Assembly (NCBI RefSeq): GCF_000420765.1
Contig: NZ_ATVO01000003.1
Span: 1-64,000 of the forward strand
From: Sandarakinorhabdus limnophila DSM 17366
Lineage (GTDB): Bacteria; Pseudomonadota; Alphaproteobacteria; Sphingomonadales; Sphingomonadaceae
DNA length: 64,000 bases
Direction: 5' to 3'
This document shows positions 1 to 17,407 of the stretch, piece by piece. The notes beneath the pieces are model-generated. The model ran no database searches. It worked only from the letters and a program-made list of their open reading frames with translations, and was not told where the DNA came from. Position numbers and translations under genes: made by a program. The first letter of the stretch is position 1, and each line of letters begins with the position of its first letter.

Positions 1-3000
1 GGCACCGCTGGCGGCCTTGCGAACAACTATGCGCTGACGGGTTCGCGGACGGCGACGATCACGCAGGCAGCTGTTACGGTCACCACCAGCGATGTTGTGA
101 AGACCTATGACGGCACGCTGAGTGTTGCGGGCGCCACGACGGCGGCATCGCCGATTGTTCTGGCGGGCAGCAACACGCAGATGTTCGGCGGCGATACGCT
201 GAGCGGCGGCAGCTATGCCTTTACGAACGCCAATGCGGGCAGCAGCAATCGTACGGTCACTGTTGCGGGCGTAAGCATCAACGATGGCAACAGTGGCGCG
301 AACTATGCGGTCACCTATGCCAGCAACACGACAAGCACGATTGATCCCGCGGCGATTACGGTTAGCACCAGCAACGTCGTCAAGACCTATGACGGAACGA
401 CCACGGCGCTTGGCACGCCTGTCGCGATTGCGGGCAGCTTGTTCACCAATGTCAGCAACGGCAATACAGCCGACAGCCTGAGCGGCGGCAGCTATGCCTT
501 TGTTGGCGCCAATGTAAGCCGCCAAGGCGGCGTTGCCTCGGGTGCCGTGCTGAATGACAAGGTCGTGACCGTTGCGGGTGTGACGGTCAACGACGGCAAT
601 AGCGGCGGCAACTACACCGTCACCTTTGCAAGCAACACCACAAGCACGATCGATCCCTATACGGTCAATCTGACTGGCTCGCGCGTTTACGACGGCGGTA
701 CGGCCGCCGAGGCTGGCATCTTCACATTGAGCCAACTCGTCGGCCAAGAAAGCCTGAGCCTTTCCGGGACAGGAAGTGTCAGCAATGCGCACGTGACGCT
801 GGTGGGCCAGCAGCCACAGGCTCAATCTCTTGGCGCGCTCGGGACGCTCGATCTGGTTGATGGCGTTGGAGCCAGTGCCGGGCTGGCGCTCAATTACAAA
901 CTTGCGGGCGGAGCGCACAACGTCACGGTCACGCCGCGTCCGCTGACCTTCTCTGCGTCGGTGCCTGATAAGATCTATGACGGCAATACGACGATCCAGG
1001 TTTCCAGCCTTTCGATCCAAAACCAGGTGCAGGGTGAGCAGCTTGATCTGGTCTTCAATCCATTTGCGAATTTCAGTGACAAGGGGGCTGGACAGAACAA
1101 AACGGTGACTATCTCCAGCATTCGTGTGCAAAGTTCGCCGACGGCGCTGAGTACAGATTACATACAACTGCCAATGAATTATCAGACGACTGCAACAATT
1201 TTTAAGAAGGACGTCACCGTTGTTGGTGTTGTCGCGATGGACAAGATCTATGATGGGACAACGACGAACATCATTAACACAAGGGTTTCCGCCCTTGCGG
1301 GGCTTATCGGCGGCGACCAACTTAGCATTTCTGGCTTGACTGGAACTTTTGCGACTAAGAATGTCGGCAGCAATATTTCGGTTATCGGTAGTGCCGTTAC
1401 GTTCAGCGGCGCGGATGCGGGTAACTATAACCTGATCCAGCCCACGGGCTTGACCGCGAATATTATGCCACGGACGCTCGTGGTGGCAGCATCAGGCATC
1501 AGTCGTGCCTATAACGGGACAATCGATGCTGGGATCAATCTAACCGACAATCGTGTCGCAGGCGATGCCATTGACTTCGGTTACACTGCATCATTCCTCG
1601 ACAAGAACGTCGGTACCAACAAATTTATAAGCATCTCAATCTCCAGCTTGGGCGGGACCGATGGCAGCAATTACGTCCTGTCTGCCAATCCATCGGCTTT
1701 TGCTGATGTTACGCGCGCTGTGTTGAGCTTCACGCCGATCGTTACAACCAAGACCTATGATGGACTGGCGGATGCGACGGTAAGTCTTGCCACCAACGTC
1801 GCCGCTGGCGATCCGATCTCGGTGAATTTCTCCGACGCGCGCTTTGACACTGCCAATGCCGGCACAGGAAAGACGGTTACCGTTACCGGCATTTCGGTCA
1901 CGGGTGACCTGTCGAACTATCAGTTCCTGCCATCGGCAACGACAGCCACCGGCTCGGGCACCATCACGCCGTTCGTGGTCGATCTGACAGGCTCGCGGGT
2001 TTATGACGGCAGCACGGCTGTCGATGCCTCCGCGCTGCGGATCGGTAACTTGCCTGGGAACCAGACGCTCAGCCTTTCGGGCACAGGCGCCATCGCCAAC
2101 CGCAATGTTGGAACCGGCAAGCTGGTGAATGCGAGCGGGCTGACGTTGGTCGACGGCGCAGGGGCCAATGCTGGCCTCGCCTCCAATTACACGCTTGTCG
2201 GCGGCAACCAGGTGGTTGACGTCACGCCGGCCAGCCTGGTGATCACAGCATCCAACGCGGTGAAGACGTATGATGGCACGACATCTGTCGCCGGTGCTGT
2301 TCAGGCACCTCAGGCGATCGTCCAGGCAAGCAGCGGCACACAGCTCTTCGGGGCCGACAGCCTGAATGGCGGAACGTTCGCTTTTGCCGACGCCAATGTT
2401 AGCCGTGACGCTGGCAATAACATCGTCAGCAACAAGGTCGTCACGGTCTCATCGGTAACTGTGAACGACGGCAATAATGGCGCGAACTATAGGGTCAGTT
2501 ATGGTGACAATACCACGAGCACCATCAACCCCTATGCGATGACCATCACGGCCCTGCAGCAGACTAAGGTGTATGATGCCTCGATCGCTGCAGGCACCTC
2601 TGCCTTCTCCGTTGGACCAATGATTGGATCCGATGCGATCGCTTCGGTGACACTGGTTTACGCTGACAAGAATGCCAGCCAAGGGAACAAGCTGATCACC
2701 CCGAGCGCTGCGATCAGTGCTCCGGGTACCATCCTCGGCAACTATGCAATCAGTTACATCGCCGATACTGGCAGCAGCATTACGCCTGCGACACTTGCGG
2801 GCGTCTCGAGCATCGTCGTCGCCGACAAACTCTATGATGGAACAACTGCTGCAAACGTGTCCTCTGCGACATTCAACGGCATCTATGACGGGGACGATGT
2901 CAGCGTTGCGATCTCGGTTGGTTCCTTTGACAGCAAGGATGTCGGCGTTCGGGCCGTCGCAATTGCAAGCTTGACCCTGGGTGGTTCGGATGGGGGCAAC

Positions 3001-5214
3001 TACCTCCTGCTGAGCAGCACGGGAACGGCAACCGGCCGGATCTTGCCAACACCGCTGACGATTTCGGCTTTGGCGCAGACGAAGGTTTACGACGGTACGA
3101 CGTTGGTGCCGAGCCTGACGCTTGGAACGGGTTACGGCGTTTCGGGCCTGGTGGGCAGCGAAAGCCTGTCGAGTGTGACGCTGGCATATGCCAATGCCAA
3201 CGTCAGCCGTAATGGCACCGGCGCTGTCCTCAGTGACAAGGTGATTACGGCCAATAGTGCCGTTGCAGCAGCTGGTACCGATCTTGCCAACTATGCGGTC
3301 AGCTATGTTGGCAACACCGCAAGCACGATTACACCTTACGCGGTGAGCCTGACGGGCGGGCGGGTCTATGATGCAACGACGGCCGTGAATGCCTCGGTGT
3401 TGACCGTCGGCACGCTGGTGGGCAGCGAAGGGCTCAGCCTGTCTGGCGCGGGTGTCCTGGCCAACAAGGACGTTGGCACGGGCAAGGTTGTCGGCCTTGG
3501 TTCGCTGAACCTGGTTAACGGCACCGGCTTGGCGAGCAACTATACGCTGGTTGGCGGGTCCATTCTGGCCGACGTTACGCCTGCTTCTTTGACCGTAACG
3601 ACGTCTGACGTGGTCAAGACCTATGATGGCAATCTGAGTGTTGCGGGCGCCACGGTTTTGCCAACGCCGGTTGTAAAGGCCGGCAGCAACACGCAGCTGT
3701 TCGGCAACGACACGTTGAACGGTGGCAGCTATGCTTTCACCAACTCCAATGCTGGCAGCGGTAACCGCACGGTAACCGTTTCTGGCGTGGTCGCGAATGA
3801 TGGCAACAGCGGCGCCAATTACATCATCAGCTACGCATCAAACACGACCAGCACGATCAACCCGGCTGCGCTGACGATTTCGGCTTTGGCGCAGACGAAG
3901 GTTTACGACGGTACGACGTTGGTGCCGAGCCTGACGCTTGGAACGGGTTACGGCGTTTCGGGCCTGGTGGGCAGCGAAAGACTGTCGAGTGTGACGCTGG
4001 CTTATGCCAATGCCAACGTCAGCCGCAATGGCGCCGGCGCTGTCCTCAGTGACAAGGTGATTACGGCCAACGGTGCCGTTGCAGCCGCTGGTACCGACCT
4101 TGCCAACTATGCGGTCAGCTATGTTGGCAACACCGCTAGCACGATTACACCTGCGCCGCTGAAGGTCACTTTGCTGGATATCATCAAGGCTTACGACAGC
4201 ATGACGGCGGCGACCGGCACACCAATTGTGGTCGCAGACGGGACGACGCGCCTGATCGGTTCAAACACGCTGTCGGGCGGTACATTCGCCTATGTCAACC
4301 CGGATGCAGGCACGAACAAGACGGTCCAAGTATCGAATGTGACCATCAACGATGGTAATAGCGGCGGAAATTACGCCATAGCATATGTGTCCAATACCAA
4401 CAGTGCGATCACGCCACGTCTTGTGTCGTTGTCGGCAACCAAGATCTTTGACGGCACTACGGACCTGGCGGGCTTGGTGGCCATCCAAACCGGCGTTCCC
4501 GGCCAGACGCTCGGCTACACTGGGGCGCGGGCATTTTCTGCCGACATCATGGCACTGGCCAATTACATTAGCGAAATCGCACTCTCCGATAGCTTGAGTG
4601 CAAAGGCATCCAACTATAGGTTGCCCATCCTCAATGCAGTAAACGCGCCGGTAACAATTGTCCTTCCTCCGGCCAGCATGATCACCAATCCCGCGATGTA
4701 CGATAAGATATCGGTCACGGCTTCGCAGCCAGTGACCAGTCTGACAACCAATCCTGGGGCCGTCACAACCTCGGGTGGTTCTGTGAATACAGGCGTACCC
4801 GGCACGACGTCGACCGGCACGACCGCTGTCGCGACTGGAGCCAGTGCTGACGCTGTGCCTGGCGGGACGAGCCAAGCATCCGCAGGTGGCGCTTCCACTG
4901 GTTCCGTTGGGCAATCTGCGGGCTTCATTTCTGCAGACATTCTGGCCCCACCCGCAATAGAAGGCGGCGCAAAATTCGAAGTGGCGGTGCCTGTGACGGC
5001 GTTCCGCCACACGGATGAGAATGCAAAAATTGCTCTGAGGGCTGAACTGGCTGACGGCGGTCCGCTGCCTGACTGGATCAACTTTGATCCAGTTTCCAAT
5101 AAACTGTCTGGCACCGCGCCAACGGGTGTGTCGGTCTTGGCTGTGGTTGTGATCGCGACGGACGAGCGCGGCGGCGAGCTCAAGGCGCCGATAAATCTTC
5201 AATTTGCACAATGA
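1..5214 (+). CDS. Giant YDG-repeat surface/adhesin-like protein (5' end outside the window)
   Basis: The frame is open from base 1 and runs 1737 residues to TGA, so the N-terminus (export signal and any haemagglutination domain) lies upstream. The visible part is about 17 tandem units of roughly 70-110 residues, each opening with a K/R-x-Y-D-G-T-type motif and often closing with S-N-T-T-S-T-I-x-P. This is the pattern of YDG/MBG repeats in filamentous-haemagglutinin-like adhesins. A Gly/Thr/Ser-rich linker (about 4720-4920) precedes a terminal domain with D-W-I-N-F-D and L-S-G-T-A-P, typical of cadherin/dystroglycan-type Ig folds. Likely extracellular, for adhesion or matrix formation. Residues are mostly small and polar with almost no Cys. 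The stop overlaps the start region of the next gene. The substrate or ligand cannot be read from the sequence. Confidence 0.88.
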   Translation, partial: GTAGGLANNYALTGSRTATITQAAVTVTTSDVVKTYDGTLSVAGATTAASPIVLAGSNTQMFGGDTLSGGSYAFTNANAGSSNRTVTVAGVSINDGNSGANYAVTYASNTTSTIDPAAITVSTSNVVKTYDGTTTALGTPVAIAGSLFTNVSNGNTADSLSGGSYAFVGANVSRQGGVASGAVLNDKVVTVAGVTVNDGNSGGNYTVTFASNTTSTIDPYTVNLTGSRVYDGGTAAEAGIFTLSQLVGQESLSLSGTGSVSNAHVTLVGQQPQAQSLGALGTLDLVDGVGASAGLALNYKLAGGAHNVTVTPRPLTFSASVPDKIYDGNTTIQVSSLSIQNQVQGEQLDLVFNPFANFSDKGAGQNKTVTISSIRVQSSPTALSTDYIQLPMNYQTTATIFKKDVTVVGVVAMDKIYDGTTTNIINTRVSALAGLIGGDQLSISGLTGTFATKNVGSNISVIGSAVTFSGADAGNYNLIQPTGLTANIMPRTLVVAASGISRAYNGTIDAGINLTDNRVAGDAIDFGYTASFLDKNVGTNKFISISISSLGGTDGSNYVLSANPSAFADVTRAVLSFTPIVTTKTYDGLADATVSLATNVAAGDPISVNFSDARFDTANAGTGKTVTVTGISVTGDLSNYQFLPSATTATGSGTITPFVVDLTGSRVYDGSTAVDASALRIGNLPGNQTLSLSGTGAIANRNVGTGKLVNASGLTLVDGAGANAGLASNYTLVGGNQVVDVTPASLVITASNAVKTYDGTTSVAGAVQAPQAIVQASSGTQLFGADSLNGGTFAFADANVSRDAGNNIVSNKVVTVSSVTVNDGNNGANYRVSYGDNTTSTINPYAMTITALQQTKVYDASIAAGTSAFSVGPMIGSDAIASVTLVYADKNASQGNKLITPSAAISAPGTILGNYAISYIADTGSSITPATLAGVSSIVVADKLYDGTTAANVSSATFNGIYDGDDVSVAISVGSFDSKDVGVRAVAIASLTLGGSDGGNYLLLSSTGTATGRILPTPLTISALAQTKVYDGTTLVPSLTLGTGYGVSGLVGSESLSSVTLAYANANVSRNGTGAVLSDKVITANSAVAAAGTDLANYAVSYVGNTASTITPYAVSLTGGRVYDATTAVNASVLTVGTLVGSEGLSLSGAGVLANKDVGTGKVVGLGSLNLVNGTGLASNYTLVGGSILADVTPASLTVTTSDVVKTYDGNLSVAGATVLPTPVVKAGSNTQLFGNDTLNGGSYAFTNSNAGSGNRTVTVSGVVANDGNSGANYIISYASNTTSTINPAALTISALAQTKVYDGTTLVPSLTLGTGYGVSGLVGSERLSSVTLAYANANVSRNGAGAVLSDKVITANGAVAAAGTDLANYAVSYVGNTASTITPAPLKVTLLDIIKAYDSMTAATGTPIVVADGTTRLIGSNTLSGGTFAYVNPDAGTNKTVQVSNVTINDGNSGGNYAIAYVSNTNSAITPRLVSLSATKIFDGTTDLAGLVAIQTGVPGQTLGYTGARAFSADIMALANYISEIALSDSLSAKASNYRLPILNAVNAPVTIVLPPASMITNPAMYDKISVTASQPVTSLTTNPGAVTTSGGSVNTGVPGTTSTGTTAVATGASADAVPGGTSQASAGGASTGSVGQSAGFISADILAPPAIEGGAKFEVAVPVTAFRHTDENAKIALRAELADGGPLPDWINFDPVSNKLSGTAPTGVSVLAVVVIATDERGGELKAPINLQFAQ
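3055..3336 (+). repeat. 282-bp internal repeat, copy 1 (of 2)
   Basis: This stretch inside the YDG-repeat gene recurs at 3871-4152, an offset of exactly 816 bases (272 codons). About the first 100 bases are identical and only around ten scattered substitutions appear across the whole length. Other units of the gene diverge strongly at DNA level, so these two copies were probably duplicated or homogenised recently. Confidence 0.9.
3871..4152 (+). repeat. 282-bp internal repeat, copy 2 (of 2)
   Basis: Second copy of the near-identical unit at 3055-3336. It encodes the same YDG domain (K-V-Y-D-G-T-T-L-V-P onward) with a few substitutions, for example S-to-R just after the G-S-E motif. Recombination between the copies would delete or add 272 residues in frame, changing the length of the surface protein. 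Confidence 0.9.
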
Positions 5215-5228
5215 AAAAGGGAATGAGC

Positions 5229-5801
5229 ATGACCAAATCATCGACCGGTGTTTTGCTTGCGGTGTGCTCCGCTGCCGCGCTGGTAGCGACCCCGCTGCAT
5301 GCAGCGAAGCCGAAGGTCTCTGAAGCAGCAGTCCCCCCACTGGCCACCAACGCGCCCGAAGCGCGCGCGCCGCAATGGACGCTCAAGGGCACCTACGGCC
5401 AGTGGGGTGTTCTGTGCAATCCATCGAGCCCAAGTGAGTGCCGCGCTGCGCAAACACAGAAATCTGTCGATGAGAAGAACCCGGGCACGCTTTTGCAAGT
5501 CTTGTTCGCCGCGGAAAAAGGCAAGATGTTCGGGGTGTTTACGCTGCCATTCGGCGTTGATCTGCGCGCCGGCATTGCGGTGCGGATCGACGAGGGCGAA
5601 GAGGTCAAGGGCAGCTTCATGACCTGCATGCCTGATGGATGCCAGTCGATCACTGAGATCAACGAGACATTGTTGGCGCAGATCCGGAAAGGAAAGGTCC
5701 TGAAAGTTGGATTTCGTTCTTGGGGCGGCGGAGACAAGACCTTAGTGGTCGATGTTCCTCTAGAGGGCGCAGGGCAAGCCATCGCGGCTTCGAACCCCTG
5801 A
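5229..5801 (+). CDS. IalB-family (invasion-associated locus B) exported protein
   Basis: Small secreted or periplasmic protein of the invasion-associated locus B family. An N-terminal signal peptide (hydrophobic L-L-A-V-C-S-A-A-A-L-V-A, cleavage after an A-x-A-like site) is followed by the family core: a W-x-x-x-C-N segment, conserved Cys pairs (C-R-A near the start, C-M-P-D-G-C in the middle) and the K-V-x-F-R-S-W pattern. The ATG at 5229 is preferred because AAGGGA lies at proper distance upstream; in-frame ATGs at 5211 and 5223 are possible. The 5211 start would overlap the adhesin stop (ATGA), so the two genes are probably translationally linked. IalB proteins are linked to host-cell interaction in Bartonella, but in free-living bacteria their role is unknown. 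Confidence 0.8.
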   Translation: MTKSSTGVLLAVCSAAALVATPLHAAKPKVSEAAVPPLATNAPEARAPQWTLKGTYGQWGVLCNPSSPSECRAAQTQKSVDEKNPGTLLQVLFAAEKGKMFGVFTLPFGVDLRAGIAVRIDEGEEVKGSFMTCMPDGCQSITEINETLLAQIRKGKVLKVGFRSWGGGDKTLVVDVPLEGAGQAIAASNP

Positions 5802-6021: not shown

Positions 6022-7194
6022 CTATTCGATGCGGTTCTCGATCGTACCCATTTGATCCACGCGGATTGCCACGACATCGCCCGGCTGCAGATAGCCGCCA
6101 GAGGCGCGGTCATCCGTGATTGTCCGCTCGATGATCGCGGAAACCGGACTGCCTTGGCCGAACTTCGCCACCCAATCGAACGCACCACGCACGAACGTCG
6201 CTGGACCCGGGCCCTGGAAGACCGTCCCTGCCGGTGTTCCCGCCAGAACCAGCGTGCGATCGGGCAGGACACCATCCGTGTTGACTGGAAGTTGCGCGCT
6301 TCCTTCACGCCAGGTCCAACTGACGCCGCTTCTCTTGGCTGTTTCGAGCAGCAAACGGTCAAGATCCCAAATCCAACTGGTTACACGGGTGTGCTGCCGC
6401 TCCTCGCCATTGACGGAGAGATGCAGCTCAAGCGGCTCGACAAAGGCCTTGAGGTCGCGCGGCACGACAAACAGCTCCCCGACAGGCAAGAAACCGGCCC
6501 CGCTCTTGCCATCGGTAAAGCCCTTGCCTGATGCGATGTCGCCAATGTCGGCGCCGCGTAGCAGCGCTGCGCGATCGGTAACATCGTTGCACAGGATCAA
6601 TCCGCCCTTGGCACCAGCGTTGGCAGGCAATGCCGAAAGTGTGACGAGGCAAAGCTCAACCTCATAATCGAGCAGGCCTTTGCTTGCCGGAATCGTGGCG
6701 CGTGACGAAGTTGGCTGGGCAACCTTCGCAAACATGAAGGGTCCGCCCTCCACCTTGGCTTCATCGGCATGCTCGGGATAATTCGTGGCCGCGGCAGCGT
6801 GCAAAGCGCGCAAATTGACCGGTACGGCGAGGGTTGCGGCATCAAGGCTAACGCGGGTCTTTGCCGAGGCAACGAACGTGGTGAGCGCATTATAGCCGAG
6901 GCGGTTATACGCTGCGATCGCATCTTCCCCGGGCAGCATTAGCGGCGTCAGGTCGACTCCAGTCACAACGCCATCCTGATAGCGGGTGACGACAATGGTC
7001 TGCGCGGCGACGCCCCGGCCAGAGCGGGCGAAGGTGAGCGCCTTGTCCGTCGGCGCTATGGCAATCGTTGCCCGCAACGGCGTAGCCGGGGCAGGCCGAA
7101 CCGGTACGCGCACTGGCTGCGGTCGTAGCCCGACAAAAGCCGCCACCGCTATGGCAAGCAAAAGCCCGATAGCTGCGAAAGAAAAGACACGCAT
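6022..7194 (-). CDS. Fumarylacetoacetate-hydrolase (FAH) family protein with N-terminal membrane anchor
   Basis: 390 residues. The last 260 or so match the FAH fold, which hydrolyses C-C bonds in beta-diketo acids or acts as a decarboxylase/isomerase. Metal-site signatures are visible: L-D-Y-E-V-E-L (E178, E180), C-N-D-V-T-D-R (about 202-208), K-G-F-T-D-G (about 224-229) and G-T-P-A-G-T (319-324). Residues 4-22 form a hydrophobic helix followed by a Pro-rich linker, so the enzyme is probably exported or tethered in the inner membrane, unlike the usual cytosolic FAH proteins. The ATG at 7194 fits this signal anchor; an in-frame start farther upstream (7245) would overlap the preceding gene. 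The gap to the upstream C-C hydrolase gene is only 8 bases, so they are co-transcribed. The substrate is unknown. Confidence 0.8.
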   Translation of the reverse strand: MRVFSFAAIGLLLAIAVAAFVGLRPQPVRVPVRPAPATPLRATIAIAPTDKALTFARSGRGVAAQTIVVTRYQDGVVTGVDLTPLMLPGEDAIAAYNRLGYNALTTFVASAKTRVSLDAATLAVPVNLRALHAAAATNYPEHADEAKVEGGPFMFAKVAQPTSSRATIPASKGLLDYEVELCLVTLSALPANAGAKGGLILCNDVTDRAALLRGADIGDIASGKGFTDGKSGAGFLPVGELFVVPRDLKAFVEPLELHLSVNGEERQHTRVTSWIWDLDRLLLETAKRSGVSWTWREGSAQLPVNTDGVLPDRTLVLAGTPAGTVFQGPGPATFVRGAFDWVAKFGQGSPVSAIIERTITDDRASGGYLQPGDVVAIRVDQMGTIENRIE

Positions 7195-7202
7195 TGCCGG
7201 AC

Positions 7203-8066
7203 CTATACTATTTGGGGAACGATGACGGCATCGGCCCCACCACAATGGCTGAACTCACCATGCAATGCCGGCAAAAAACCTGCCAGATGCGGCATTTCTT
7301 CCGCACAATGAACCAGTAGCGCGCGTGCATCGTTTTCGGTCAGCCGCTGCACCAGCTTGGCGATCGGCACCGCCAGGCTGCCCACCAAATTGCGCCCGGC
7401 GACATGGCGTCCTCCCATCCAGAAGCGCGAGCGCATCTCGCTGCCACCGGGAACGGCGCGAACATGATGGGCCAAATAGCCGATATCGATCGGAGCATCG
7501 CCAAGCCCGATGCGGGCGCAAACAATGGTCGCCTGGCGATCATCTTCGAGGCTGCGATCGCTGAACCCTAGCGACGCGGGCGGCACAAAGCGAATAGCGC
7601 CGCGGATCAGCGTGCTGCCGATATACTCGTCGACTATTGAAGTCTGGCCAACATAAAGCGCGCGGCCGGTCGTACCGGAAGGCGGCGTCTCGCGCCAACC
7701 GACGTGAACATGCGCCTGCGGATGCCAGAGCTTGTATTTGGCAGGCGTGTCGCCATGCCAACCGAACCACCAGTCGATCATGGCCGGGGTCACGCCGGGC
7801 ATGGCGGTGCGCACGCTCACTCGCATCCCGCCGTCAGGCAGGAGGACATAGCCATCCTCAAGCACGTCGCCGCCGCCGAACAGGTTCTCTGCCGCATCCT
7901 CAAATCCGGGCAGCAGCGGCGCCGGCACACCGCCGCGATCAAGCGCTGCGGTGACATGCGGCGCCACCGGCGCCATATGAGGATTGAAAAAGTGCGCAAA
8001 GGATTGGGCAGTGTCGGCGGCTTGATAGCCCAGATAGCGGCCGGCGATCGGCTTGCTGCTCTTCAT
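7203..8066 (-). CDS. DAPG/phloretin hydrolase family C-C hydrolase
   Basis: 287 residues resembling 2,4-diacetylphloroglucinol hydrolase (PhlG) and phloretin hydrolase, zinc enzymes that cleave the C-C bond between an acyl group and a phenolic ring. The expected metal ligands are recognisable by spacing: a His in L-W-H-P-Q-A-H (H115 or H119), E148 in V-D-E-Y-I-G, and the H253-x3-E257 pair in H-C-A-E-E. PhlG uses H129, E160, H270 and E274, a comparable layout. The start overlaps the end of the upstream oxidase by four bases (ATGA), and the gene sits between that oxidase and an FAH-family hydrolase. I infer that it cleaves an acylphenol-type intermediate; the exact compound cannot be told from sequence. 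Confidence 0.8.
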   Translation of the reverse strand: MKSSKPIAGRYLGYQAADTAQSFAHFFNPHMAPVAPHVTAALDRGGVPAPLLPGFEDAAENLFGGGDVLEDGYVLLPDGGMRVSVRTAMPGVTPAMIDWWFGWHGDTPAKYKLWHPQAHVHVGWRETPPSGTTGRALYVGQTSIVDEYIGSTLIRGAIRFVPPASLGFSDRSLEDDRQATIVCARIGLGDAPIDIGYLAHHVRAVPGGSEMRSRFWMGGRHVAGRNLVGSLAVPIAKLVQRLTENDARALLVHCAEEMPHLAGFLPALHGEFSHCGGADAVIVPQIV

Positions 8067-9406
8067 GGAACGCGCCCCATATAGGGATTGAAGAGCCCGT
8101 CCGGGTCGTAGCGCACGCGCAGCGCGTCCAGCCGGACGAGATTGGCCGGCGCCATGAACGGCGCCGGGCGGCGACCGAGATTTTCATCGGCCAACTGAAT
8201 GCCGACGCTGTGGTCCTGCATGGCGCGCATCTGATCGGTCGCCCAACTTTCATCGGCCGGGTTTGCCGTGTCGCTGCGCAACCCGCCGTACAGCGCGAGA
8301 TAGGTTCGCGCTTCGAGCGAAAAGGCCATGTCGGGGCGTGTTGCTGGGCCATTCCAGTTGAGCCAGAGCACATGACTGGGGGACGCCGGCTGGGTATCGG
8401 CAATCCGTCGCATCGCCGGCAACAATGGGTCTATAGGCGTGTTCATCCACATGCTGTCGGCCGTCCAGCGCGTGTTGGGCAGGAACAGGGTGTTTTCGCC
8501 GCCCTTCATCATCATGTTCAACGAGACAGGCAACAGCGGCAGAGTGAAGCTTGCAAGCTTGCGGATCGGGCTGTTGTCGATGAAGGCTACCGCTGCGCGC
8601 GCCTCTGCCCAGCTGTTGGCGAGAACCGGCGTGAGTACTTGGATACCATGAGCAAATATCCCAAGTGCTTTGCGATCGAGGACGAGCTGAAATTCGGCGT
8701 TGGGGGCCACCGACGGCCCGACGCGATCCGCCCACGCCATCACGGCTTCAAGGTGGCGGATGCGAAAGACCTGCACCTTCATGCCGACGAATTTTGGGCG
8801 CACTTGAAGCTTCAGATGAAACCGCACGACGACGCCGAAAAAGCCGGGGCCGGCCCCACGCGCGGCCCAGAGCAGTTCAGGATTTTCGGTTTCGCTGGCA
8901 TGTACCAGAGTGCCATCGGCAAGAACGACGTCGATGCCGGTAACGCTTTGGCAGGCCATTCCGGATGCGCGGCTATTCCAGCCAAAGCCGCCCTGCAGCA
9001 GAAAGCCGCCCATCCCGACCGTATAGGCATGCGCCACCGGGAAGAAGAGATTGTGTTTCGAAAGGGCAGCGTTGAGATCGCCGGCGAGACAGCCGGGACC
9101 GATCCTTGCCGTGCCATCGGCGGCGTTGATGGTGATGCTGTCGAGGCGCGACAGGTCAATCAACATGCCGCTGTCGCGAATATGGTTCTGCGCCCAGCTG
9201 TGCCCGCCCGAACAGATGCCGATGGTCAGGCCTTGGTCTTTCGCTTGCCGAACGGCGGCCACAACATCGGTGTCGTCATTGGCCTGGACAATGAGCGCCG
9301 GGCGGCGGCCCGGGTCCTGCGCGTTGAAACTGGTGCCCAGCACCGCCGCATCAAAGCCGGCCTCCCCATTTGCGATGATCCGGCCCTTGCCGGCACTTCG
9401 CTTCAT
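8063..9406 (-). CDS. FAD-linked oxidase, berberine-bridge-enzyme (BBE) type
   Basis: 447 residues. It has an N-terminal FAD-binding-4 (PCMH/VAO) domain and a C-terminal BBE element ending in Y-D-P-D-G-L-F-N-P-Y. S-G-G-H-S-W (H69) is the histidine that carries 8-alpha-linked FAD. The cysteine that gives bicovalent flavin in plant BBE is missing: the aligned stretch reads A-H-A-Y-T-V-G-M-G-G, with Ala127 at the Cys position. A single covalent link is therefore expected. Such enzymes oxidise alcohols, sugars or phenolics with oxygen. The start overlaps the end of the TetR gene by four bases, and the stop overlaps the C-C hydrolase gene. In this context it probably performs the oxidation before or between the two C-C hydrolysis steps. 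Confidence 0.85.
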   Translation of the reverse strand: MKRSAGKGRIIANGEAGFDAAVLGTSFNAQDPGRRPALIVQANDDTDVVAAVRQAKDQGLTIGICSGGHSWAQNHIRDSGMLIDLSRLDSITINAADGTARIGPGCLAGDLNAALSKHNLFFPVAHAYTVGMGGFLLQGGFGWNSRASGMACQSVTGIDVVLADGTLVHASETENPELLWAARGAGPGFFGVVVRFHLKLQVRPKFVGMKVQVFRIRHLEAVMAWADRVGPSVAPNAEFQLVLDRKALGIFAHGIQVLTPVLANSWAEARAAVAFIDNSPIRKLASFTLPLLPVSLNMMMKGGENTLFLPNTRWTADSMWMNTPIDPLLPAMRRIADTQPASPSHVLWLNWNGPATRPDMAFSLEARTYLALYGGLRSDTANPADESWATDQMRAMQDHSVGIQLADENLGRRPAPFMAPANLVRLDALRVRYDPDGLFNPYMGRVP

Positions 9407-10092
9407 GGAACTGAGCCAGCAGGAGGCCTGATCGGCGGCAGCGCCAGCCAGCGCATCGGCAATGCTGGGGTGAGCGGAAATGGAATCGGTTCATGGCCCA
9501 GTGCTGCCGCGACAGCCGGATCAAGCCCGAGCAGTTCGAGCAAACGCGTCGTTGCAGCTTCGATGGCAGTCAACGGCAAGATGCCTCGATGCAGGTCGAG
9601 CGCGAGGCCGCTGATCGCTCCCGAGACCATGCTGGTGGTCAGGTCGAGGTCCGAAAGATTGAAGCGGCCAAGCTGCATGCCTTCAGCAAGATCAAGTTTC
9701 AGCCGCAGCCGAAGTTCCGAGACAAGGCTGTCGGCGGGCAGGCCGACATCAAAGATCAGGCGGCCAAAGCCAGGCTCTTTAGCCACCATTCGCAGCGTCT
9801 GGCGGGTTATGCGGGCAAAGCGTAGCGCCGGATCCGCCAACGCTTGATTGAAGCCGGCCATGGCCGCGGCGTGGTTGGCGCCGAGAAGCTCGCCAAGATC
9901 GGCAACCAGAGCGGCAACATCCGGATAGTAGTTGTAGAATGTCCCATGCACCACGCCGGCATGATCGGTGATCTGCCGAATGCCGAGCGCCGCCGCCGTA
10001 TGCGTCATCAAAAGCGATTGCGCCGCCGCCAGCAGCTGGTCACGTGTTCGGGCGCGTTTGGAACTGCGCAAAGGACTGGTTTCGAGAAGCAC
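9403..10092 (-). CDS. TetR/AcrR-family transcriptional regulator of the C-C hydrolase operon
   Basis: About 229 residues. The N-terminal helix-turn-helix (R-T-R-D-Q-L-L-A-A-A-Q, then I-R-Q-I-T-D-H-A-G-V-V-H-G-T-F-Y-N-Y-Y) is typical of TetR, with a long helical ligand-binding C-terminus and a Pro-rich tail. The start is uncertain. A TTG at 10110 lies inside the palindrome at 10093-10130; a GTG at 10092 sits exactly at the edge of that palindrome and is chosen here; neither has a good ribosome-binding site. It is the first gene of a leftward operon (oxidase, C-C hydrolase, FAH hydrolase) and probably represses it until a substrate or intermediate binds. Confidence 0.82.
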   Translation of the reverse strand: MLLETSPLRSSKRARTRDQLLAAAQSLLMTHTAAALGIRQITDHAGVVHGTFYNYYPDVAALVADLGELLGANHAAAMAGFNQALADPALRFARITRQTLRMVAKEPGFGRLIFDVGLPADSLVSELRLRLKLDLAEGMQLGRFNLSDLDLTTSMVSGAISGLALDLHRGILPLTAIEAATTRLLELLGLDPAVAAALGHEPIPFPLTPALPMRWLALPPIRPPAGSVP

Positions 10093-10130
10093 AATTTGAC
10101 GTAATCTCAAATTTGAAATTTCGTCAAATT
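10093..10130. promoter_or_regulatory. Concentric palindromic operator upstream of the TetR-led catabolic operon
   Basis: Perfect 9-bp arms AATTTGACG (10093-10101) and CGTCAAATT (10122-10130) flank a second perfect palindrome TCAAATTTGA (10107-10116). Both share the same centre between bases 10111 and 10112. The site abuts the regulator's likely start codon, the expected place for autorepression by a TetR dimer. It lies between the regulator and the converging end of the acyl-CoA ligase gene. Confidence 0.7.
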
Positions 10131-10276
10131 AAATCTTGAGAGCTGATCCCTTACCCGTCCCCTTGCGTACCCCGCGAGCGGCCTCCCAAGACACGCGCCG
10201 CTTATGGAGTTGCTCCGATGGCTTTGCGCGCTGTCAACTGGGTGCGCAGACCTGTCGCCTATGTGCCTTTGCATTT

Positions 10277-11827
10277 TCAGGCAATCTTGCTCGAGCGACC
10301 CGCCCAATAAGGGTCGCGCAGCTGGCGCTTGTAGAGCTTGCCAGTCGGTAAGCGTGGCAATTGTTCGGTGAAGTCGATCGAGCGCGGGCATTTGATGTGC
10401 GCCAGATGCTCCCGGCAAAACGCTATCAGTTCGGCGGCAAGTTCAGCATCTGCCAGTACGCCCGGCGCGGCTTGCACCACAGCCTTCACTTCTTCGCCCA
10501 GATCCTCGTTGGGTACACCAAACACGGCAACATCGGTCACCTTGGGATGGGTGATCAGCAGGTTTTCGCACTCCTGCGGATAGATGTTCATGCCGCCGGA
10601 AATGATCATGAACGTCTTACGGTCAGTGAGGTGAAGGAAGCCATCAGCATCGAGATAGCCGACATCGCCAACGGTGGTTTTCGTCCCGTCGGCAGAACGG
10701 CTTTCGTTTGTCTTGTCAGCGTTCTCGAAATACTCGAACGGCGTCGCGGTCGTGAACCAGATGGTGCCAGGCTCCCCCTCGGATGCCGGCTGCATCTCGT
10801 CATCGAGGATGTGGATGTCACCGAGCATCACACGCCCCACGGTGCCCTTGTGAGCCAACCATTCGGCTGAATCGCAAGCTGTGAAGCCCAGTGCTTCGGT
10901 GGCGCCATAATATTCGTGGATGATCGGCCCCCACCAAGCAATCATCGCCTCCTTCACCGACACCGGACAGGGGGCGGCACCATGGACGGCGACTTCCAGT
11001 GAGCTGAGGTCGTAGCAGGTGCGAACATCCTCCGGCAGCTTCAGCATTCGTGAAAACATCGTCGGCACCAGCTGGGTGTGGGTGACGCGGTAGCGTTCGA
11101 CCAATTGCAGATAGGCTTCGGGATTGAAGCTCTCCATGATTACGGCGGTGCCACCAGCTTGGATTGCCAGCGCCACGGCTGCCTGCGGCGCGGAGTGATA
11201 TAGTGGCGCGGGCGACAGATAGATCATGCTGTCGCGGTAGCGCCACAGTTGGGTTAGAAACGTGTAGAGCGGCAAGCCGACGTCGGGTGTCACTTTTGGT
11301 AGAGGCCGCAAAATGCCTTTGGGCTGGCCAGTGGTGCCCGAGGAGTAAAGCATGGCAGCGCCCAGCCATTCATCGGAAATCGGCGTGGCGGGCATGCCGG
11401 CAACTGCGGCATCGAGCTCGCGGATATTGTCGCCATCTCCCGCACCATCGACCACGAGGCAGAGCGCGACACCGGGTGCAAGCGCCATGGCTGCGCGTGC
11501 GACGTCCAGCTTGGCCGTTGACGTGATCAGTATCTTCGACCGGCTGTTGCTGAGGACATAGGCCAGTTCGTCGACGCCCAGATAGCTGTTGATCGGCGTG
11601 AAATAGAGCCCGGCACGCGCACCCGCGCCGCAGCACTCCACATAGCGCGCGTTGTTTTCCATGTAGATCGCGTAATGGTCGAGGCGGTTCAGGCCCTGTT
11701 GGCGAAACAGATGCGCCAACTTGTTGGTGCGCTTTTCGAGCTCGCCATAACTGATGGCCTCGCCTGATCCTGCCATAATGACGGCAATCCGGTTTGGGTC
11801 GCTTGTTGCGATCGCGCCTGGTAACAT
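10277..11827 (-). CDS. AMP-forming acyl/aryl-CoA ligase (ANL superfamily)
   Basis: 516 residues of the ANL adenylate-forming family, which activates a carboxylic acid as acyl-AMP and then the CoA thioester. Signatures: Y-S-S-G-T-T-G-Q-P-K-G at 161-171 (P-loop), Y-Y-G-A-T-E (adenine/substrate contact), G-D-V-G-Y-L-D and D-R-K-T-F-M-I-I-S-G-G (hinge), and the C-terminal catalytic lysine in P-T-G-K (about K497). The ATG at 11827 has GGGGA just upstream and begins 20 bases after the stop of the TetR gene at 11847-12440, giving a two-gene operon. Substrate choice (medium-chain, aromatic or steroid acid) cannot be read. Context suggests it activates the acid released by the neighbouring C-C hydrolases. 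Confidence 0.88.
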   Translation of the reverse strand: MLPGAIATSDPNRIAVIMAGSGEAISYGELEKRTNKLAHLFRQQGLNRLDHYAIYMENNARYVECCGAGARAGLYFTPINSYLGVDELAYVLSNSRSKILITSTAKLDVARAAMALAPGVALCLVVDGAGDGDNIRELDAAVAGMPATPISDEWLGAAMLYSSGTTGQPKGILRPLPKVTPDVGLPLYTFLTQLWRYRDSMIYLSPAPLYHSAPQAAVALAIQAGGTAVIMESFNPEAYLQLVERYRVTHTQLVPTMFSRMLKLPEDVRTCYDLSSLEVAVHGAAPCPVSVKEAMIAWWGPIIHEYYGATEALGFTACDSAEWLAHKGTVGRVMLGDIHILDDEMQPASEGEPGTIWFTTATPFEYFENADKTNESRSADGTKTTVGDVGYLDADGFLHLTDRKTFMIISGGMNIYPQECENLLITHPKVTDVAVFGVPNEDLGEEVKAVVQAAPGVLADAELAAELIAFCREHLAHIKCPRSIDFTEQLPRLPTGKLYKRQLRDPYWAGRSSKIA

Positions 11828-11846
11828 TAGTTCCCCATCTTTGGCG

Positions 11847-12440
11847 TTAAACTGACAGCACCGATTGGCGGGGTGCGGTTTGCAGCAGACGAAGCGCCGT
11901 GTCGATTGCCTCGCGGATTTGACGGTCTGGGAGTTTGCGGCGGCTAGCCACTCGCACGCCTTCATTCACCAGCATGAGGTAGGCGGCGTATTCGGTGGCG
12001 CGTGCCGGAGAGTAGCCAGCTTCGCGCAGGCACTCGTCGAGCAGTGCCTGCAATTTCGACAGCCATGCGCTGGCCGCCACGGCCAGTTCGTCATCTACGC
12101 CTGCAAGCTCGATGACGGTGTTGACTACCATGCACCCGAGCCCTGCCTTCGATACTTCAGCATGGTTCAGGCTATGTTCCAGGAAATACCTTATGGCATC
12201 CATCGGCGGGTATTTGTCCCTGGCCTTCTGGACAATGACAAAGGTTCGCTCCGCGAAAAGGTTGAGGCACTCGATGTACAGGCGCCGCTTATCTCTGAAC
12301 GCAGCGTAGAAACTGCCGCGGCCAATCTTCATTTCAACCAAGAGATCCGAAAGGGATGACGCCTGGTAGCCGTTGCGCCAGAAGAGCTTCAATGCGCTCT
12401 CCCTCGCGGTCATGATGTCAAACTCGATCGGACGTGCCAT
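11847..12440 (-). CDS. TetR/AcrR-family repressor (NemR/AcrR-like subgroup)
   Basis: 197 residues. N-terminal HTH of the subgroup starting M-A-R-P-x-E-F-D: A-L-K-L-F-W-R-N-G-Y-Q-A-S-S-L-S-D-L-L, then G-R-G-S-F-Y-A-A-F-R-D-K. The C-terminal domain carries the A-G-L-G-C-M-V-V-N-T pattern common in this group, including a Cys that in NemR-type proteins can sense electrophiles. It is transcribed with the acyl-CoA ligase and is divergent from the nitronate-monooxygenase-like gene. The palindrome GACCGTTCGGTC just upstream of its start is a typical operator for this subgroup and could control both directions. Confidence 0.87.
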   Translation of the reverse strand: MARPIEFDIMTARESALKLFWRNGYQASSLSDLLVEMKIGRGSFYAAFRDKRRLYIECLNLFAERTFVIVQKARDKYPPMDAIRYFLEHSLNHAEVSKAGLGCMVVNTVIELAGVDDELAVAASAWLSKLQALLDECLREAGYSPARATEYAAYLMLVNEGVRVASRRKLPDRQIREAIDTALRLLQTAPRQSVLSV

Positions 12441-13655: not shown

Positions 13656-15338
13656 ATGAAGAGTTTGTCTTTGATCGTTGTTGTGGGCCTGGCGCTCACG
13701 TCTGTTGAAGCGATCGTGGCACCGCTGACGCCGTCACTGCTGACGGGTGTCGTCAAGGACAGCCATGGCATGCCGCTCAACGGTGTCATGGTTAGGGTGA
13801 GCGACGATGCGTCGGGCCTGGCGGACAATGTTTTCACGGATGCAGAGGGGAAGTATGCGCTGTCAACGCGCCTCTCAGGGGATGTCGTGGTCAGGTTCCG
13901 CCTGCCGTATTACCAGGACGAGACGCGCAAGCTGACGCTTGCCGCGAGGCGGCCTGTCGAGCAGGCGGCGACCCTCAAGCGCATGACGGTCTCGGCTGAC
14001 ATTTCCGAAAGCCTGCCATCCGCCTATCACTTCGGGAACCTTGCCTTCGACAAGGACCCGACGGCGATTTTAAGCCGCGGAAACGTGCAGCGCGACTGTG
14101 CGGGCTGCCATGCGCTGGGCAATACTGTGTCACGTGCGCCGCGGCCGCTTGAGCAGTGGGTCGAGGTGGTCAAGCTCATGCAGGGTTATCTTGGCAACCC
14201 GGATCCAAAGCTGATCGAGAGCCGGGCTGCGCTGCTGTCCGCCGGCTTCCGGGGGCAGGCGCCGAACGTGCGGCCGGTGTTTCCCGTCGACGCTGAACTC
14301 CACACCGCCGTGATCCACGAATACAAGCTCGAGAGCACCCTGTTCCCGCATGACGGTGACATCAGCGCTGTCGATGGCCTGATGTATACGGTCGACCGCA
14401 CTGGCAACCAGATGGTGGTGACGGACCTTGTTACCGGCAAGTCTGTGTATATCGAGCAGCCTCCATCGACGCGTCCTGCCGTCGAAGGCGGGAACAGCTA
14501 TTCCGCACGCTCCACGGATCCAGGTCCGCATTCGCTGGTGCTCGGGAAGACCGGCTACTGGTACACGACGAACGCCGGGTCCGACGAGATTGGCGTGTTC
14601 GATCCGAAGACACGGAAGTGGAAGGATTCGTTCGTGCTGCCAGAGCCGGCACGCTATCCGCATACGATACGGGCAGGAAGCGATGGCATCATCTGGTTCA
14701 CGCTGGCGGCGTCGTCGCAGGTGGGCCGGCTTGATCCAATCAGCGGGGACATCAAACTGATCAATCTGCCAAAGCTCAAGCCGCTTGGCGGTGCGGGCGG
14801 CTCGCTTCCTTACGGCATCGATGTAAGCCCAGTTGACGGGCGCGTCTGGTATGCACGCCTGTGGGGCGACAAGCTTGGCGCCATTGATCCAAAGACGCTT
14901 GAGGTGACGGAATTCGACTCGCCGGTTGAAGGGCCGCGTCGCCTGCGCTTCGATGAGAGCGGTGCGCTTTGGTTGACAGGATACAGCGAAGGCATGATCG
15001 CGCGTGTTGATACCGCGAGCATGAAAAGCGAGGTCTATCCAATGCCCGAGTTTGCTCCGGGGTATAGACCTGGCCCATATGCGCTTGCGATCCATCCGGT
15101 CACGCAGGAGGTCTGGATAAACGAGACCTCGACGGATCGCGTGTATCGTTTCCTACCGAAGGAGAAGCGATTCATCGTGTATCCGATGCCGTTGCGCGGG
15201 ACCTTTACACGTGACTTTGCTTTCACGGCGTCGGGGTGGGCTTGCACGTCGAACAGCCCGATCCTGAACGCCGCGCTGGAAGGAAACGAAACGGAGTTGC
15301 TCTGCATTGATCCCAACGGAGCGGGGCCGCGCAAGTGA
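13656..15338 (+). CDS. Exported Vgb-type beta-propeller protein with carboxypeptidase-regulatory domain and haem c motif
   Basis: 560 residues, with three recognisable parts. After a signal peptide (about 1-22) there is a carboxypeptidase-regulatory-like beta-sandwich (L-T-G-V-V-K-D-S-H-G-M-P-L-N-G-V, F-T-D-A-E-G-K-Y). Next comes a C-A-G-C-H haem-binding motif (C148-H152) in a short cytochrome-like segment. From about residue 220 to the end is a streptogramin-lyase (Vgb)-like propeller with repeated I-W-F-T, V-W-Y-A-R-L-W-G-D-K-L-G and L-W-L-T-G-Y motifs. It should act in the periplasm. The SD GAGGAAAAG supports the ATG at 13656. The next gene, a membrane protein, starts within its stop (GTGA), so the two products probably work together, perhaps as a redox or sensor pair. 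Function is unknown. Confidence 0.75.
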   Translation: MKSLSLIVVVGLALTSVEAIVAPLTPSLLTGVVKDSHGMPLNGVMVRVSDDASGLADNVFTDAEGKYALSTRLSGDVVVRFRLPYYQDETRKLTLAARRPVEQAATLKRMTVSADISESLPSAYHFGNLAFDKDPTAILSRGNVQRDCAGCHALGNTVSRAPRPLEQWVEVVKLMQGYLGNPDPKLIESRAALLSAGFRGQAPNVRPVFPVDAELHTAVIHEYKLESTLFPHDGDISAVDGLMYTVDRTGNQMVVTDLVTGKSVYIEQPPSTRPAVEGGNSYSARSTDPGPHSLVLGKTGYWYTTNAGSDEIGVFDPKTRKWKDSFVLPEPARYPHTIRAGSDGIIWFTLAASSQVGRLDPISGDIKLINLPKLKPLGGAGGSLPYGIDVSPVDGRVWYARLWGDKLGAIDPKTLEVTEFDSPVEGPRRLRFDESGALWLTGYSEGMIARVDTASMKSEVYPMPEFAPGYRPGPYALAIHPVTQEVWINETSTDRVYRFLPKEKRFIVYPMPLRGTFTRDFAFTASGWACTSNSPILNAALEGNETELLCIDPNGAGPRK

Positions 15339-16167: not shown

Positions 16168-16779
16168 ATGCTCAAGCTTCATTTTGCCCCTAACTCGCGC
16201 GCCGGCCGGATCGTCTGGTTGCTAGAAGAGCTTGGGCTGCCTTATGAGATCAACAAGATGGCGTTCCATCCCAGTGCGCTGAAATCGGATGAACATCGCG
16301 CACGTCATCCACTTGGCCGTGTCCCGGTGCTTGAAGATGGCGATGTTTCAATTTTTGAGTCAGGCGCAATCGTCGACTATATTCTTGAACGCCATAAGAA
16401 TGGCGGGCTTAAACCCGCAGTGTCCGATCAGCGATTTCCGGCCTATCTGCAATGGTTCCATTATTGCGAGGGGATGATCATGCCGCCGATCAACACCATT
16501 GTGGTACATACACTGATCTTGCCCGAAGAACGACGCGATGCAACCGTGTTGGGGCAAGCAAAGCGGTTGCTGACCAACGCGCTGGCGCCGGTTGATGAGG
16601 CTTTGGTCGGCAAAGACTACCTGATCAGCGAATTTTCGGGGGCCGACATTATGCTCGGCCACGCCTGTTTCATGAGCAATCGGGTTGGCTGCGTCCCCGA
16701 TGAAATGGCAAACCTCAAGGCCTATGTTGCCCGCATCGCAGCACGTCCCGACTTCCAGACTGCGATCAGGATGCAATAG
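16168..16779 (+). CDS. Glutathione S-transferase family protein
   Basis: 203 residues with the two-domain GST layout. The thioredoxin-like N-terminus has M-L-K-L-H-F-A-P-N-S-R-A-G-R, the cis-Pro signature G-R-V-P-V-L-E-D-G and the glutathione-binding E-S-G-A-I. The helical C-terminal domain carries the Y-L-I-S-E-F-S-G-A-D-I-M-L-G motif around residue 151-163. Ser12 near the N-terminus is a candidate activating residue. An SD-like AAAAGGA lies upstream of the ATG. It stands alone after the crotonase remnant and could conjugate or detoxify electrophilic intermediates of the nearby catabolic genes. Confidence 0.88.
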   Translation: MLKLHFAPNSRAGRIVWLLEELGLPYEINKMAFHPSALKSDEHRARHPLGRVPVLEDGDVSIFESGAIVDYILERHKNGGLKPAVSDQRFPAYLQWFHYCEGMIMPPINTIVVHTLILPEERRDATVLGQAKRLLTNALAPVDEALVGKDYLISEFSGADIMLGHACFMSNRVGCVPDEMANLKAYVARIAARPDFQTAIRMQ

Positions 16780-17314: not shown

Positions 17315-17407
17315 ATGAATTGGCTAGCGTGTTTTCAGGTTCCGCTGCGGCGGCGTCCCTTGGGGGCGCATGGTTAAGGCGGTATGTGAATGTGACTGGA
17401 CTTGCCG

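What the first reader, a model, noticed from the sequence alone, without database searches (positions are those of the whole stretch)
6022..12440. Undescribed-looking catabolic locus with two different C-C bond hydrolases, a BBE-type oxidase and an acyl-CoA ligase
Seen: a tightly coupled leftward operon TetR - FAD oxidase - DAPG/phloretin-hydrolase-type - FAH-type (4-base overlaps and an 8-base gap), then a second TetR with an acyl-CoA ligase and a divergent NMO-like enzyme. Known: PhlG-type enzymes remove acyl groups from phloroglucinols and FAH-type enzymes cut beta-diketones. Inferred: oxidation and two retro-Claisen cleavages of an acylated phenol or polyketide (acylphloroglucinol, chalcone or lichen-type compound), with the acid products turned into CoA esters. 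I know of no characterised pathway with this combination.
Basis: partly seen in the sequence, partly recalled or inferred. Interest (0 to 1): 0.75.

Follow-up and report, generated by a model that had tools for sequence, protein, structure and literature searches.

The report
Coupled flavin oxidase and C-C hydrolase operon
Four tightly packed genes encode a repressor, a flavin oxidase and two enzymes of carbon-carbon-bond-cleaving families; the oxidase-hydrolase pair recurs with overlapping genes in many freshwater bacteria and mycobacteria, but what it breaks down is unknown.

Summary
The four-gene leftward operon is real: TetR1 (9403-10092), FAD oxidase (8063-9406), PhlG-type hydrolase (7203-8066), membrane-anchored FAH-type hydrolase (6022-7194), with two 4-base overlaps and an 8-base gap. 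The acyl-CoA ligase, second TetR and NMO-like gene are not part: DNA homology to relatives stops at the FAH end (6024, G005) and before the ligase (10059-10060, G404 and G026). The core is the oxidase-hydrolase pair: adjacent in 84 of 88 related rows (two misses are contig ends), overlapping at 73 of 73 scored junctions, co-varying distances, and the same five of 396 genomes hold both subfamilies. A 38-bp inverted repeat abuts the TetR1 start; related repeats precede TetR1 in the 15 other loci I aligned. The hydrolase keeps zinc and catalytic residues but lacks two recalled phloroglucinol-binding residues and lies outside the DAPG/phloretin hydrolase clade. The acylphloroglucinol reading is thus not supported; oxidation then hydrolytic C-C cleavage of an unknown beta-dicarbonyl-type compound is most likely. 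The mycobacterial form probably corresponds to M. tuberculosis Rv1774-Rv1775 and lies beside orphan P450 CYP144 in 6 loci. New variant of a known kind.

The parts
6022..7194 (-). FAH-superfamily hydrolase (390 aa) with an N-terminal hydrophobic anchor; optional third enzyme
   Evidence: PF01557 67.9 bits; start by alignment with 8 relatives, one of them (L017) a short interrupted ORF; hydrophobic 19-mer (mean Kyte-Doolittle 1.8-2.9) at the N terminus of all nine sequences; directly downstream in 9 of 85 assessable rows
7203..8066 (-). PhlG-type zinc C-C hydrolase (287 aa), core enzyme
   Evidence: PF18089 178.5 bits; model pLDDT 93.0, Z 29.8 to phloretin hydrolase 5xe5 over 257 residues; metal and catalytic residues invariant in 32 aligned sequences and in all 88 clade rows
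8063..9406 (-). FAD-dependent oxidase (447 aa), EncM-like fold, predicted single covalent His link to FAD; core enzyme
   Evidence: PF01565 106.9 bits; EncM best solved relative, Z 43.8 over 431 residues; His69 present, Ala127 at the place of the second (Cys) link
9403..10092 (-). TetR1 repressor, first gene of the operon (GTG start)
   Evidence: PF00440 and PF21306 over cut-off; homologue with the pair in 47 of 88 rows; distances co-vary with the hydrolase, Mantel r 0.893, n 46
10093..10130 (.). 38-bp inverted repeat directly before the TetR1 start, probable operator over the promoter
   Evidence: 19-nt arms, 89% complementary, no spacer; its pattern occurs once in the window, 0 expected in shuffles, and once in the genome; related repeat at the same place in the 15 other loci aligned, of 46 other rows with TetR1

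Best explanation
This is a small catabolic or detoxifying operon under its own TetR repressor. The shown part: a FAD oxidase and a PhlG-type zinc hydrolase are encoded by overlapping genes and are inherited together across Alphaproteobacteria, Actinomycetota and a few others. The inferred part: the oxidase (EncM-like, without the threonine tied to flavin-N5-oxide chemistry, hence a plain oxidase) turns a hydroxyl or enol of the substrate into a ketone, which makes a beta-dicarbonyl; the hydrolase adds water to that carbonyl with zinc and splits the neighbouring C-C bond (retro-Claisen). In a few lineages a membrane-anchored FAH-type enzyme cleaves a product a second time. TetR1 binds the repeat at 10093-10130, which abuts the start of its own gene, and lets go when the substrate or a product binds. 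The substrate is probably not a standard acylphloroglucinol; a more hydrophobic beta-diketone or polyketide-like compound fits better.
For: Adjacency of oxidase and hydrolase in 84 of 88 rows, two misses being contig ends (L040, L062). Overlapping stop/start at 73 of 73 scored junctions: 41 ATGA, 27 TGATG/TAATG, 5 possible GTGA (not scored: the window itself, three swapped-order rows, seven rows with partial or split oxidase ORFs). Mantel r 0.876 between hydrolase and oxidase distances, n 77, largest of 999 permutations 0.113. The same 5 of 396 order genomes hold both subfamilies; in the genus the oxidase subfamily is in 2 of 24 genomes, both with the hydrolase. In G195, G211, G304 and in L077 the order is swapped but the genes still adjoin, so adjacency outlived rearrangement. 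Zinc and catalytic residues kept in all 88 rows. Operator-like repeat, single site in G000, G026 and G404. EncM Thr139 is Val130 here; a review reports oxidase activity for EncM T139V (PMC7662398, passages seen).
Against: No substrate, product or induction was observed. Oxidation before cleavage is inference; the order could be reverse. Relatives were drawn by similarity to this hydrolase (best 80 of 242), which favours close kin with shared context, and the score limits that define the two subfamilies were set after seeing the scores. Two rows (L069, L090) have the hydrolase without an adjacent oxidase. Other PF18089 members have no oxidase beside them within the stretch held (12 'orphan' and 1 Pantoea locus). 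PMC8562490 (passages seen) says the M. tuberculosis homologue keeps phloroglucinol-recognition residues, which disagrees with my reading of this clade.
Confidence: 0.62

Rival explanations
1. One reading: breakdown of acylphloroglucinols or chalcones (DAPG, phloretin, usnic-acid-like compounds) with the products made into CoA esters by the neighbouring ligase.
For: PF18089 family; best solved relatives are phloretin hydrolase and PhlG; Tyr111 (PhlG Tyr121, recalled role) is kept in all 88 rows. PMC8562490 (passages) reads the M. tuberculosis homologue as able to bind a phloroglucinol moiety.
Against: Tree: the 88 rows are one side of a branch (SH-aLRT 91), with DAPG and phloretin hydrolases a separate clade (99). 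PhlG Asn132 is Val or Ala and Tyr229 is Phe or Met in the 88 rows, while a Pantoea protein annotated as DAPG hydrolase keeps both. NCBIfam PhlG equivalog score 92.6 against cut-off 600. The ligase is not conserved beside the operon.
Confidence: 0.13
2. Detoxification rather than growth: the operon destroys an antibiotic or allelochemical with a polyketide core met in lakes and soils, like PhlG converting DAPG to a less toxic product.
For: Patchy presence (2 of 24 genus genomes), one operator-like site per genome in G000, G026 and G404, no transporter or ring-cleavage gene inside the four-gene block.
Against: Broad presence in mycobacteria (27 rows of one clade) and recurrent neighbours such as sulfatases and GSTs also fit catabolism.
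Confidence: 0.2
3. Tailoring in a biosynthetic pathway (EncM-type oxidative rearrangement followed by chain trimming).
For: Closest solved oxidase is EncM, a biosynthetic enzyme; SorD (sorbicillin) is next.
Against: No polyketide synthase among the ten window proteins scanned; I saw none in the neighbour sequences printed, but most neighbour clusters were not named. EncM Thr139 is replaced by Val in all 29 aligned rows.
Confidence: 0.05

Closest known systems
PhlG (DAPG hydrolase) and phloretin hydrolase Phy, PF18089
   Same: Fold (Z 28.0 to 3hwp and 29.8 to 5xe5), zinc and catalytic residues, hydrolytic C-C cleavage as the likely reaction
   Different: Separate clade; Asn132 and Tyr229 replaced; coupled to an oxidase in nearly all rows of this clade, whereas the Pantoea DAPG hydrolase locus shows none
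EncM (enterocin FAD oxygenase)
   Same: Whole-length fold match, Z 43.8, 27% identity; His of the covalent FAD link
   Different: Val in place of Thr139 and Phe in place of Leu144; no carrier protein or PKS context seen; paired with a hydrolase
Mycobacterium tuberculosis Rv1774-Rv1775 (named in separate papers; sequences not fetched)
   Same: Rv1775 is described as PhlG-like (PMC8562490) and Rv1774 as similar to maize cytokinin oxidase (PMC11925245), passages seen; other mycobacteria in the set carry the same pair with overlapping genes
   Different: Divergent IclR regulator instead of TetR1 and no FAH in the mycobacterial loci seen; in 6 of 27 rows of that clade a CYP144 gene is near
Fumarylacetoacetate hydrolase family (HpcE, FAHD1)
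   Same: PF01557 domain and its conserved acidic and His positions by eye
   Different: N-terminal membrane anchor; far below the cut-offs of the two NCBIfam equivalogs matched
PVA degradation (secondary alcohol oxidase plus beta-diketone hydrolase), recalled
   Same: Logic: oxidise to a beta-diketone, then hydrolyse the C-C bond
   Different: Different protein families (recalled, not tested)

Membership tests
PF18089 DAPG_hydrolase | score over the curated cut-off | tested here: met
   178.5 bits against 22.7
PhlG/Phy zinc C-C hydrolases | zinc ligands and catalytic His (roles recalled) | tested here: met
   H119, E147, H253, E257 and H200 in all 88 rows
2,4-diacetylphloroglucinol hydrolase (equivalog) | NCBIfam NF047887 cut-off 600 bits | tested here: not met
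   92.6 bits
2,4-diacetylphloroglucinol hydrolase (equivalog) | Asn132 and Tyr229 for the phloroglucinol ring (recalled) | tested here: not met
   Val122 and Phe215 in the window; V/A and F/M in the 88 rows; N and Y in Pantoea L105
Phloretin hydrolase | cleaves phloretin | not testable with these tools
   needs an assay; separate clade in the tree
Berberine bridge enzyme (BBE) | C-terminal BBE domain PF08031 | tested here: not met
   only PF01565 at E up to 0.001
Berberine bridge enzyme (BBE) | second covalent link to FAD through Cys | tested here: not met
   Ala127 in the window; Cys in 45, Ala in 34, undetermined in 4 of 83 sequences, the window included
EncM | His-linked FAD | tested here: met
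   His69 in the GGH motif; H in 77, R in 2, gap in 4 of 83 sequences; the covalent bond itself was not tested
EncM | Thr139 linked to N5-oxide chemistry | tested here: not met
   Val130, invariant in 29 rows; T139V gave oxidase activity (PMC7662398, passages)
FAH superfamily PF01557 | score over the curated cut-off | tested here: met
   67.9 bits against 23.9

The most novel reading that the evidence does not exclude
The pair is one widespread, undescribed pathway module for a common class of hydrophobic beta-dicarbonyl or sulfated polyketide-like compounds. In mycobacteria the orphan P450 CYP144 works in the same pathway: it hydroxylates the compound, the Rv1774-type oxidase makes the ketone and the Rv1775-type hydrolase splits the chain. 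In some sphingomonads a sulfatase, coupled to the oxidase gene by an 8-base overlap (G304), frees the hydroxyl first.
Probability: 0.15. Interest if true: 0.75.

Novelty: new variant of a known kind. Interest (0 to 1): 0.5.

Why it matters
A two-enzyme module shared by freshwater Alphaproteobacteria and mycobacteria points to a common natural compound that has not been named. It ties together three tuberculosis genes that the passages I saw treat separately (Rv1774, Rv1775, CYP144A1), turning three orphan functions into one question. It can be studied in environmental sphingomonads, where a TetR operator offers a direct route to the inducer and so to the substrate.

Tried and rejected
Ligase, second TetR and NMO-like gene as parts: rejected. 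The ligase orthologues (85%) in genus-mates G010 and G022 have neither TetR2, NMO nor the operon within the 16-kb stretches taken; ligase relatives appear in 45 of 98 genomes at E up to 1e-100. Among the loci, NMO relatives lie near the pair only in L048 and L049, and one ligase relative (37%) at the edge of L079.

Sulfatase/GST/dehalogenase-like cluster as an obligatory partner: rejected for the window. Near the pair a sulfatase was found in 11 of 86 loci, GST in 16, dehalogenase-like hydrolase in 9, but these include syntenic near-copies and two genomes met twice (L028/L143, L037/L142). The handles for the background count (1 to 9 sulfatase matches per genome over 18 genomes, some under the curated cut-off) were chosen knowing that several had one nearby. 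In this genus the sulfatase SulfB is in 22 of 24 genomes while the oxidase of the pair is in 2 of 24, and here it lies on another contig (C9). What remains is the sulfatase coupled to the oxidase in G304.

FAH as essential: rejected; 9 of 85 rows, 4 changes on the tree.

Defence system: no PADLOC match for the four proteins; no PHROGs match for three. Promoter and terminator scans stayed near the shuffles (2 against 1.8; 10 against 6.6, sd 2.2). A TauD-family check of the own genome led nowhere. Literature: searches showed no paper on this pair as a unit in their listings; the library lacks most subscription journals, and the PhlG structure paper was not held.

Plasmids: 24 records matched the hydrolase and 4 were opened. 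The pair is on the M. riyadhense plasmid; Pantoea, Sulfitobacter and Agrobacterium carry hydrolase relatives without an oxidase beside them.

Limits of the co-occurrence count: only 4 candidates per genome were scored; 9 of 396 genomes matched at E up to 1e-80, and four of them (G065, G243, G253, G314; 272 to 438 bits) have no hydrolase hit. Of the 10 hydrolase hits, five (G008, G346, G403, G410, G344; 21 to 162 bits) have no oxidase hit.

Rows dropped: L001, L002, L004, L007 and L012 were removed before (another FAH gene of the own genome, copies of the window, a duplicate of L006); L015, L016 and L104 gave no row. L003/L037, L005/L026 and L008/L028 look like one genome met in two collections, so 88 rows are fewer than 88 genomes. 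In one search the label 'cassette' was given to all rows of the clade, including the four without an adjacent oxidase. Many organism names are MAG labels, some doubtful (for instance Bifidobacterium breve on lake contigs).

Correction made on checking: the DNA match to G005 ends at 10062 because its contig ends 30 bases further; the TetR1-side edge therefore rests on G026 and G404 alone.
Full report
What is there. On the minus strand the window holds TetR1 (9403-10092), an FAD-dependent oxidase (8063-9406), a PhlG-type hydrolase (7203-8066) and an FAH-type hydrolase (6022-7194). Pfam gives PF21306/PF00440, PF01565, PF18089 and PF01557, all over their cut-offs. The first two junctions are ATGA overlaps and the third is an 8-base gap. 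Starts were corrected by alignment: FAH at ATG 7194, TetR1 at GTG 10092. Beyond lie an acyl-CoA ligase (relatives suggest a start near 11827), a second TetR and an NMO-like gene on the other strand.

How far the unit reaches. Against the genus-mate G005 the DNA match runs 6024-10062; on the FAH side 1.2 kb of contig follow without a match, but on the TetR1 side the contig ends 30 bases further, so that edge is not informative there. Against G026 and G404, where long flanks were held, the match runs from the hydrolase (7282 and 7268) to TetR1 (10060 and 10059) and stops; no ligase, TetR2 or NMO relative is in those 16-17 kb stretches. The ligase gives a separate block (10276-11836) in G010 and G022, which lack the operon and the ligase's window neighbours in the 16 kb taken. 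So the operon is a self-contained, patchily distributed block: the oxidase subfamily is in 2 of 24 genus genomes.

The conserved core. The genome-contig scan found 242 relatives of the hydrolase and kept the best 80. With the window, six loci from genome searches and one plasmid this gives 88 rows in one clade. An oxidase of the same subfamily is adjacent on the same strand in 84 of 88; of the others L040 and L062 end at the contig edge and L069 and L090 lack it. Of 73 junctions scored in the order oxidase-hydrolase, 41 are ATGA, 27 TGATG or TAATG, 5 possible GTGA and none shows a gap; the window, three swapped rows and seven rows with partial or split oxidase ORFs were not scored there. In G195, G211, G304 and L077 the order is swapped and the genes still adjoin (an ATGA overlap was read in G304). 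Pairwise distances agree: Mantel r 0.876 (n 77) for hydrolase-oxidase and 0.893 (n 46) for hydrolase-TetR1, with permutation maxima 0.113 and 0.185. In 396 genomes of the order, 10 have a hydrolase relative, of which five (G000, G195, G211, G304, G404) score over 200 bits; nine have an oxidase relative, of which the same five score over 700 bits and the rest 438 or less. These limits were set after seeing the scores. TetR1 relatives are present in 47 of 88 rows; mycobacteria have a divergent IclR gene instead (cluster of 20 loci; one member scanned; annotated so in M. riyadhense).

The hydrolase. Its model (pLDDT 93.0) matches phloretin hydrolase 5xe5 (Z 29.8, rmsd 2.7, 257 residues) and PhlG 3hwp (Z 28.0, rmsd 2.7, 252). 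Mapping by the alignments, and with roles recalled from the PhlG structure paper (not held), the metal ligands H119, E147, H253, E257, the catalytic H200 and Y111 (PhlG Tyr121) are present in all 88 rows, while PhlG Asn132 is Val or Ala and Tyr229 is Phe or Met. A Pantoea protein annotated as DAPG hydrolase keeps Asn and Tyr. Phe at that place is also seen in the 12 relatives without an oxidase, so it marks members other than DAPG and phloretin hydrolases rather than the pair alone. In a quick tree of 103 rows the 88 are one side of a branch (SH-aLRT 91) and the DAPG/phloretin group another (99); long branches make deeper joins unsure. PMC8562490 (passages only) says Rv1775 keeps phloroglucinol-recognition residues but not those for phloretin; I did not see that sequence, and my reading of its relatives differs.

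The oxidase. Its closest solved relatives are EncM (E 2e-40; Z 43.8, rmsd 2.4, 431 residues) and SorD (Z 40.4). No BBE domain was matched. His69 lies in the GGH motif of the covalent link; at the place of a second Cys link the window has Ala, and of 83 sequences (window included) 45 have Cys, 34 Ala and 4 are undetermined, with 3 changes on the hydrolase tree. EncM Thr139 corresponds to Val130, invariant in 29 rows. A review says that EncM T139V showed oxidase activity (PMC7662398, passages), so a plain oxidase is the natural prediction.

The FAH-type enzyme. It directly follows the pair in 9 of 85 assessable rows (window included; one, L017, is a short interrupted ORF), needing 4 changes on the tree. 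All nine have an N-terminal hydrophobic stretch. In the three swapped-order genomes fetched more widely a second, distant group of anchored FAH proteins (35% identical over 203 residues in the one compared) lies within about 2 kb. This repeated pairing suggests a real but optional role. Which side of the membrane it faces was not decided.

Control. Directly before the TetR1 GTG lies an inverted repeat with two 19-nt arms (10093-10130, 89% complementary). Its pattern occurs once in the window with none expected and once in the genome. In 15 other loci that I chose for alignment (of 46 other rows with TetR1) a related double palindrome of the form TTGACATAATGTCAT/TGACATTATGTCAT lies at the same place, degenerate in some. 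That form occurs once each in G026 and G404, at the operon, while the same pattern found nothing in G000 and G005: in G000 the repeat has diverged, and G005's contig ends there. This supports autoregulation of a single operon; binding was not tested.

Mycobacteria. In the mycobacterial clade (27 rows) a P450 gene lies near the pair in 6: it follows, after a divergent TetR gene, in L073, L079, L084, L088 and L093, and lies on the other side in L094. The L088 P450 matches solved CYP144 with E 1.6e-196 and the other five are 71-73% identical to it. Papers seen in passages place Rv1775 as PhlG-like (PMC8562490) and Rv1774 as similar to maize cytokinin oxidase (PMC11925245); section 4 of PMC4880925 gives Rv1777 as CYP144A1, in a region rich in genes of unknown function. 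None of the passages I saw links the three. That Rv1774-Rv1775 is the same pair is inferred from these names; no M. tuberculosis sequence was fetched.

Mechanism. Shown: coupled genes, shared inheritance, kept catalytic residues, conserved repeat. Inferred: oxidation to a beta-dicarbonyl, then zinc-assisted hydrolysis of the C-C bond, optional second cleavage by FAH, release of TetR1 by substrate or product. Unknown: the substrate. Sulfatases and GSTs recur near the pair in several sphingomonad and Caulobacter loci (11 and 16 of 86), and in G304 a sulfatase gene overlaps the oxidase stop by 8 bases, but the sulfatase SulfB of this genus is in 22 of 24 genomes with or without the pair, so it is only a hint.

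Verdict. It is a new variant: known enzyme families joined into a module that I did not find described in searches.

Noticed in passing
window 16168-16779: GST whose homologue (78% identical) lies next to the oxidase gene in G211 (L160:11165-11785); it may serve the same pathway although it is 6 kb away here.
   Followed up: partly
L073, L079, L084, L088, L093, L094: A CYP144 gene (orphan P450) and a TetR gene lie beside the mycobacterial pair.
   Followed up: partly
L164:7290-16796 (G000:C9): The window's genome carries a cluster of two sulfatases, an FGE-type sulfatase-modifying protein, a GST and an alpha/beta-hydrolase; a similar cluster lies next to the operon in L021, L023, L024 and G404.
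   Followed up: partly
L051, L054, L055, L056, L057, L058, L059, L066: In freshwater Actinomycetota a small DUF1330 protein (cluster 22, 8 loci; one member scanned) directly follows the pair.
   Followed up: partly
window 97-5214: Long repetitive protein with 14 YDG-domain stretches (PF18657), followed by an IalB-like gene at 5211-5801.
   Followed up: no
window 17402-19170; L024 and L025: A Ppx/GppA gene and an FtsJ-type methyltransferase gene near the operon here are also a few kb from the operon in L024 and L025, so the site may be shared.
   Followed up: no
L006, L013, L014: A second PF18089 group without adjacent oxidase occurs in the same genus and family.
   Followed up: no
window 13656-15338: Protein with Vgb-lyase-like repeats and a carboxypeptidase-regulatory domain, far below the streptogramin lyase cut-offs.
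   Followed up: no
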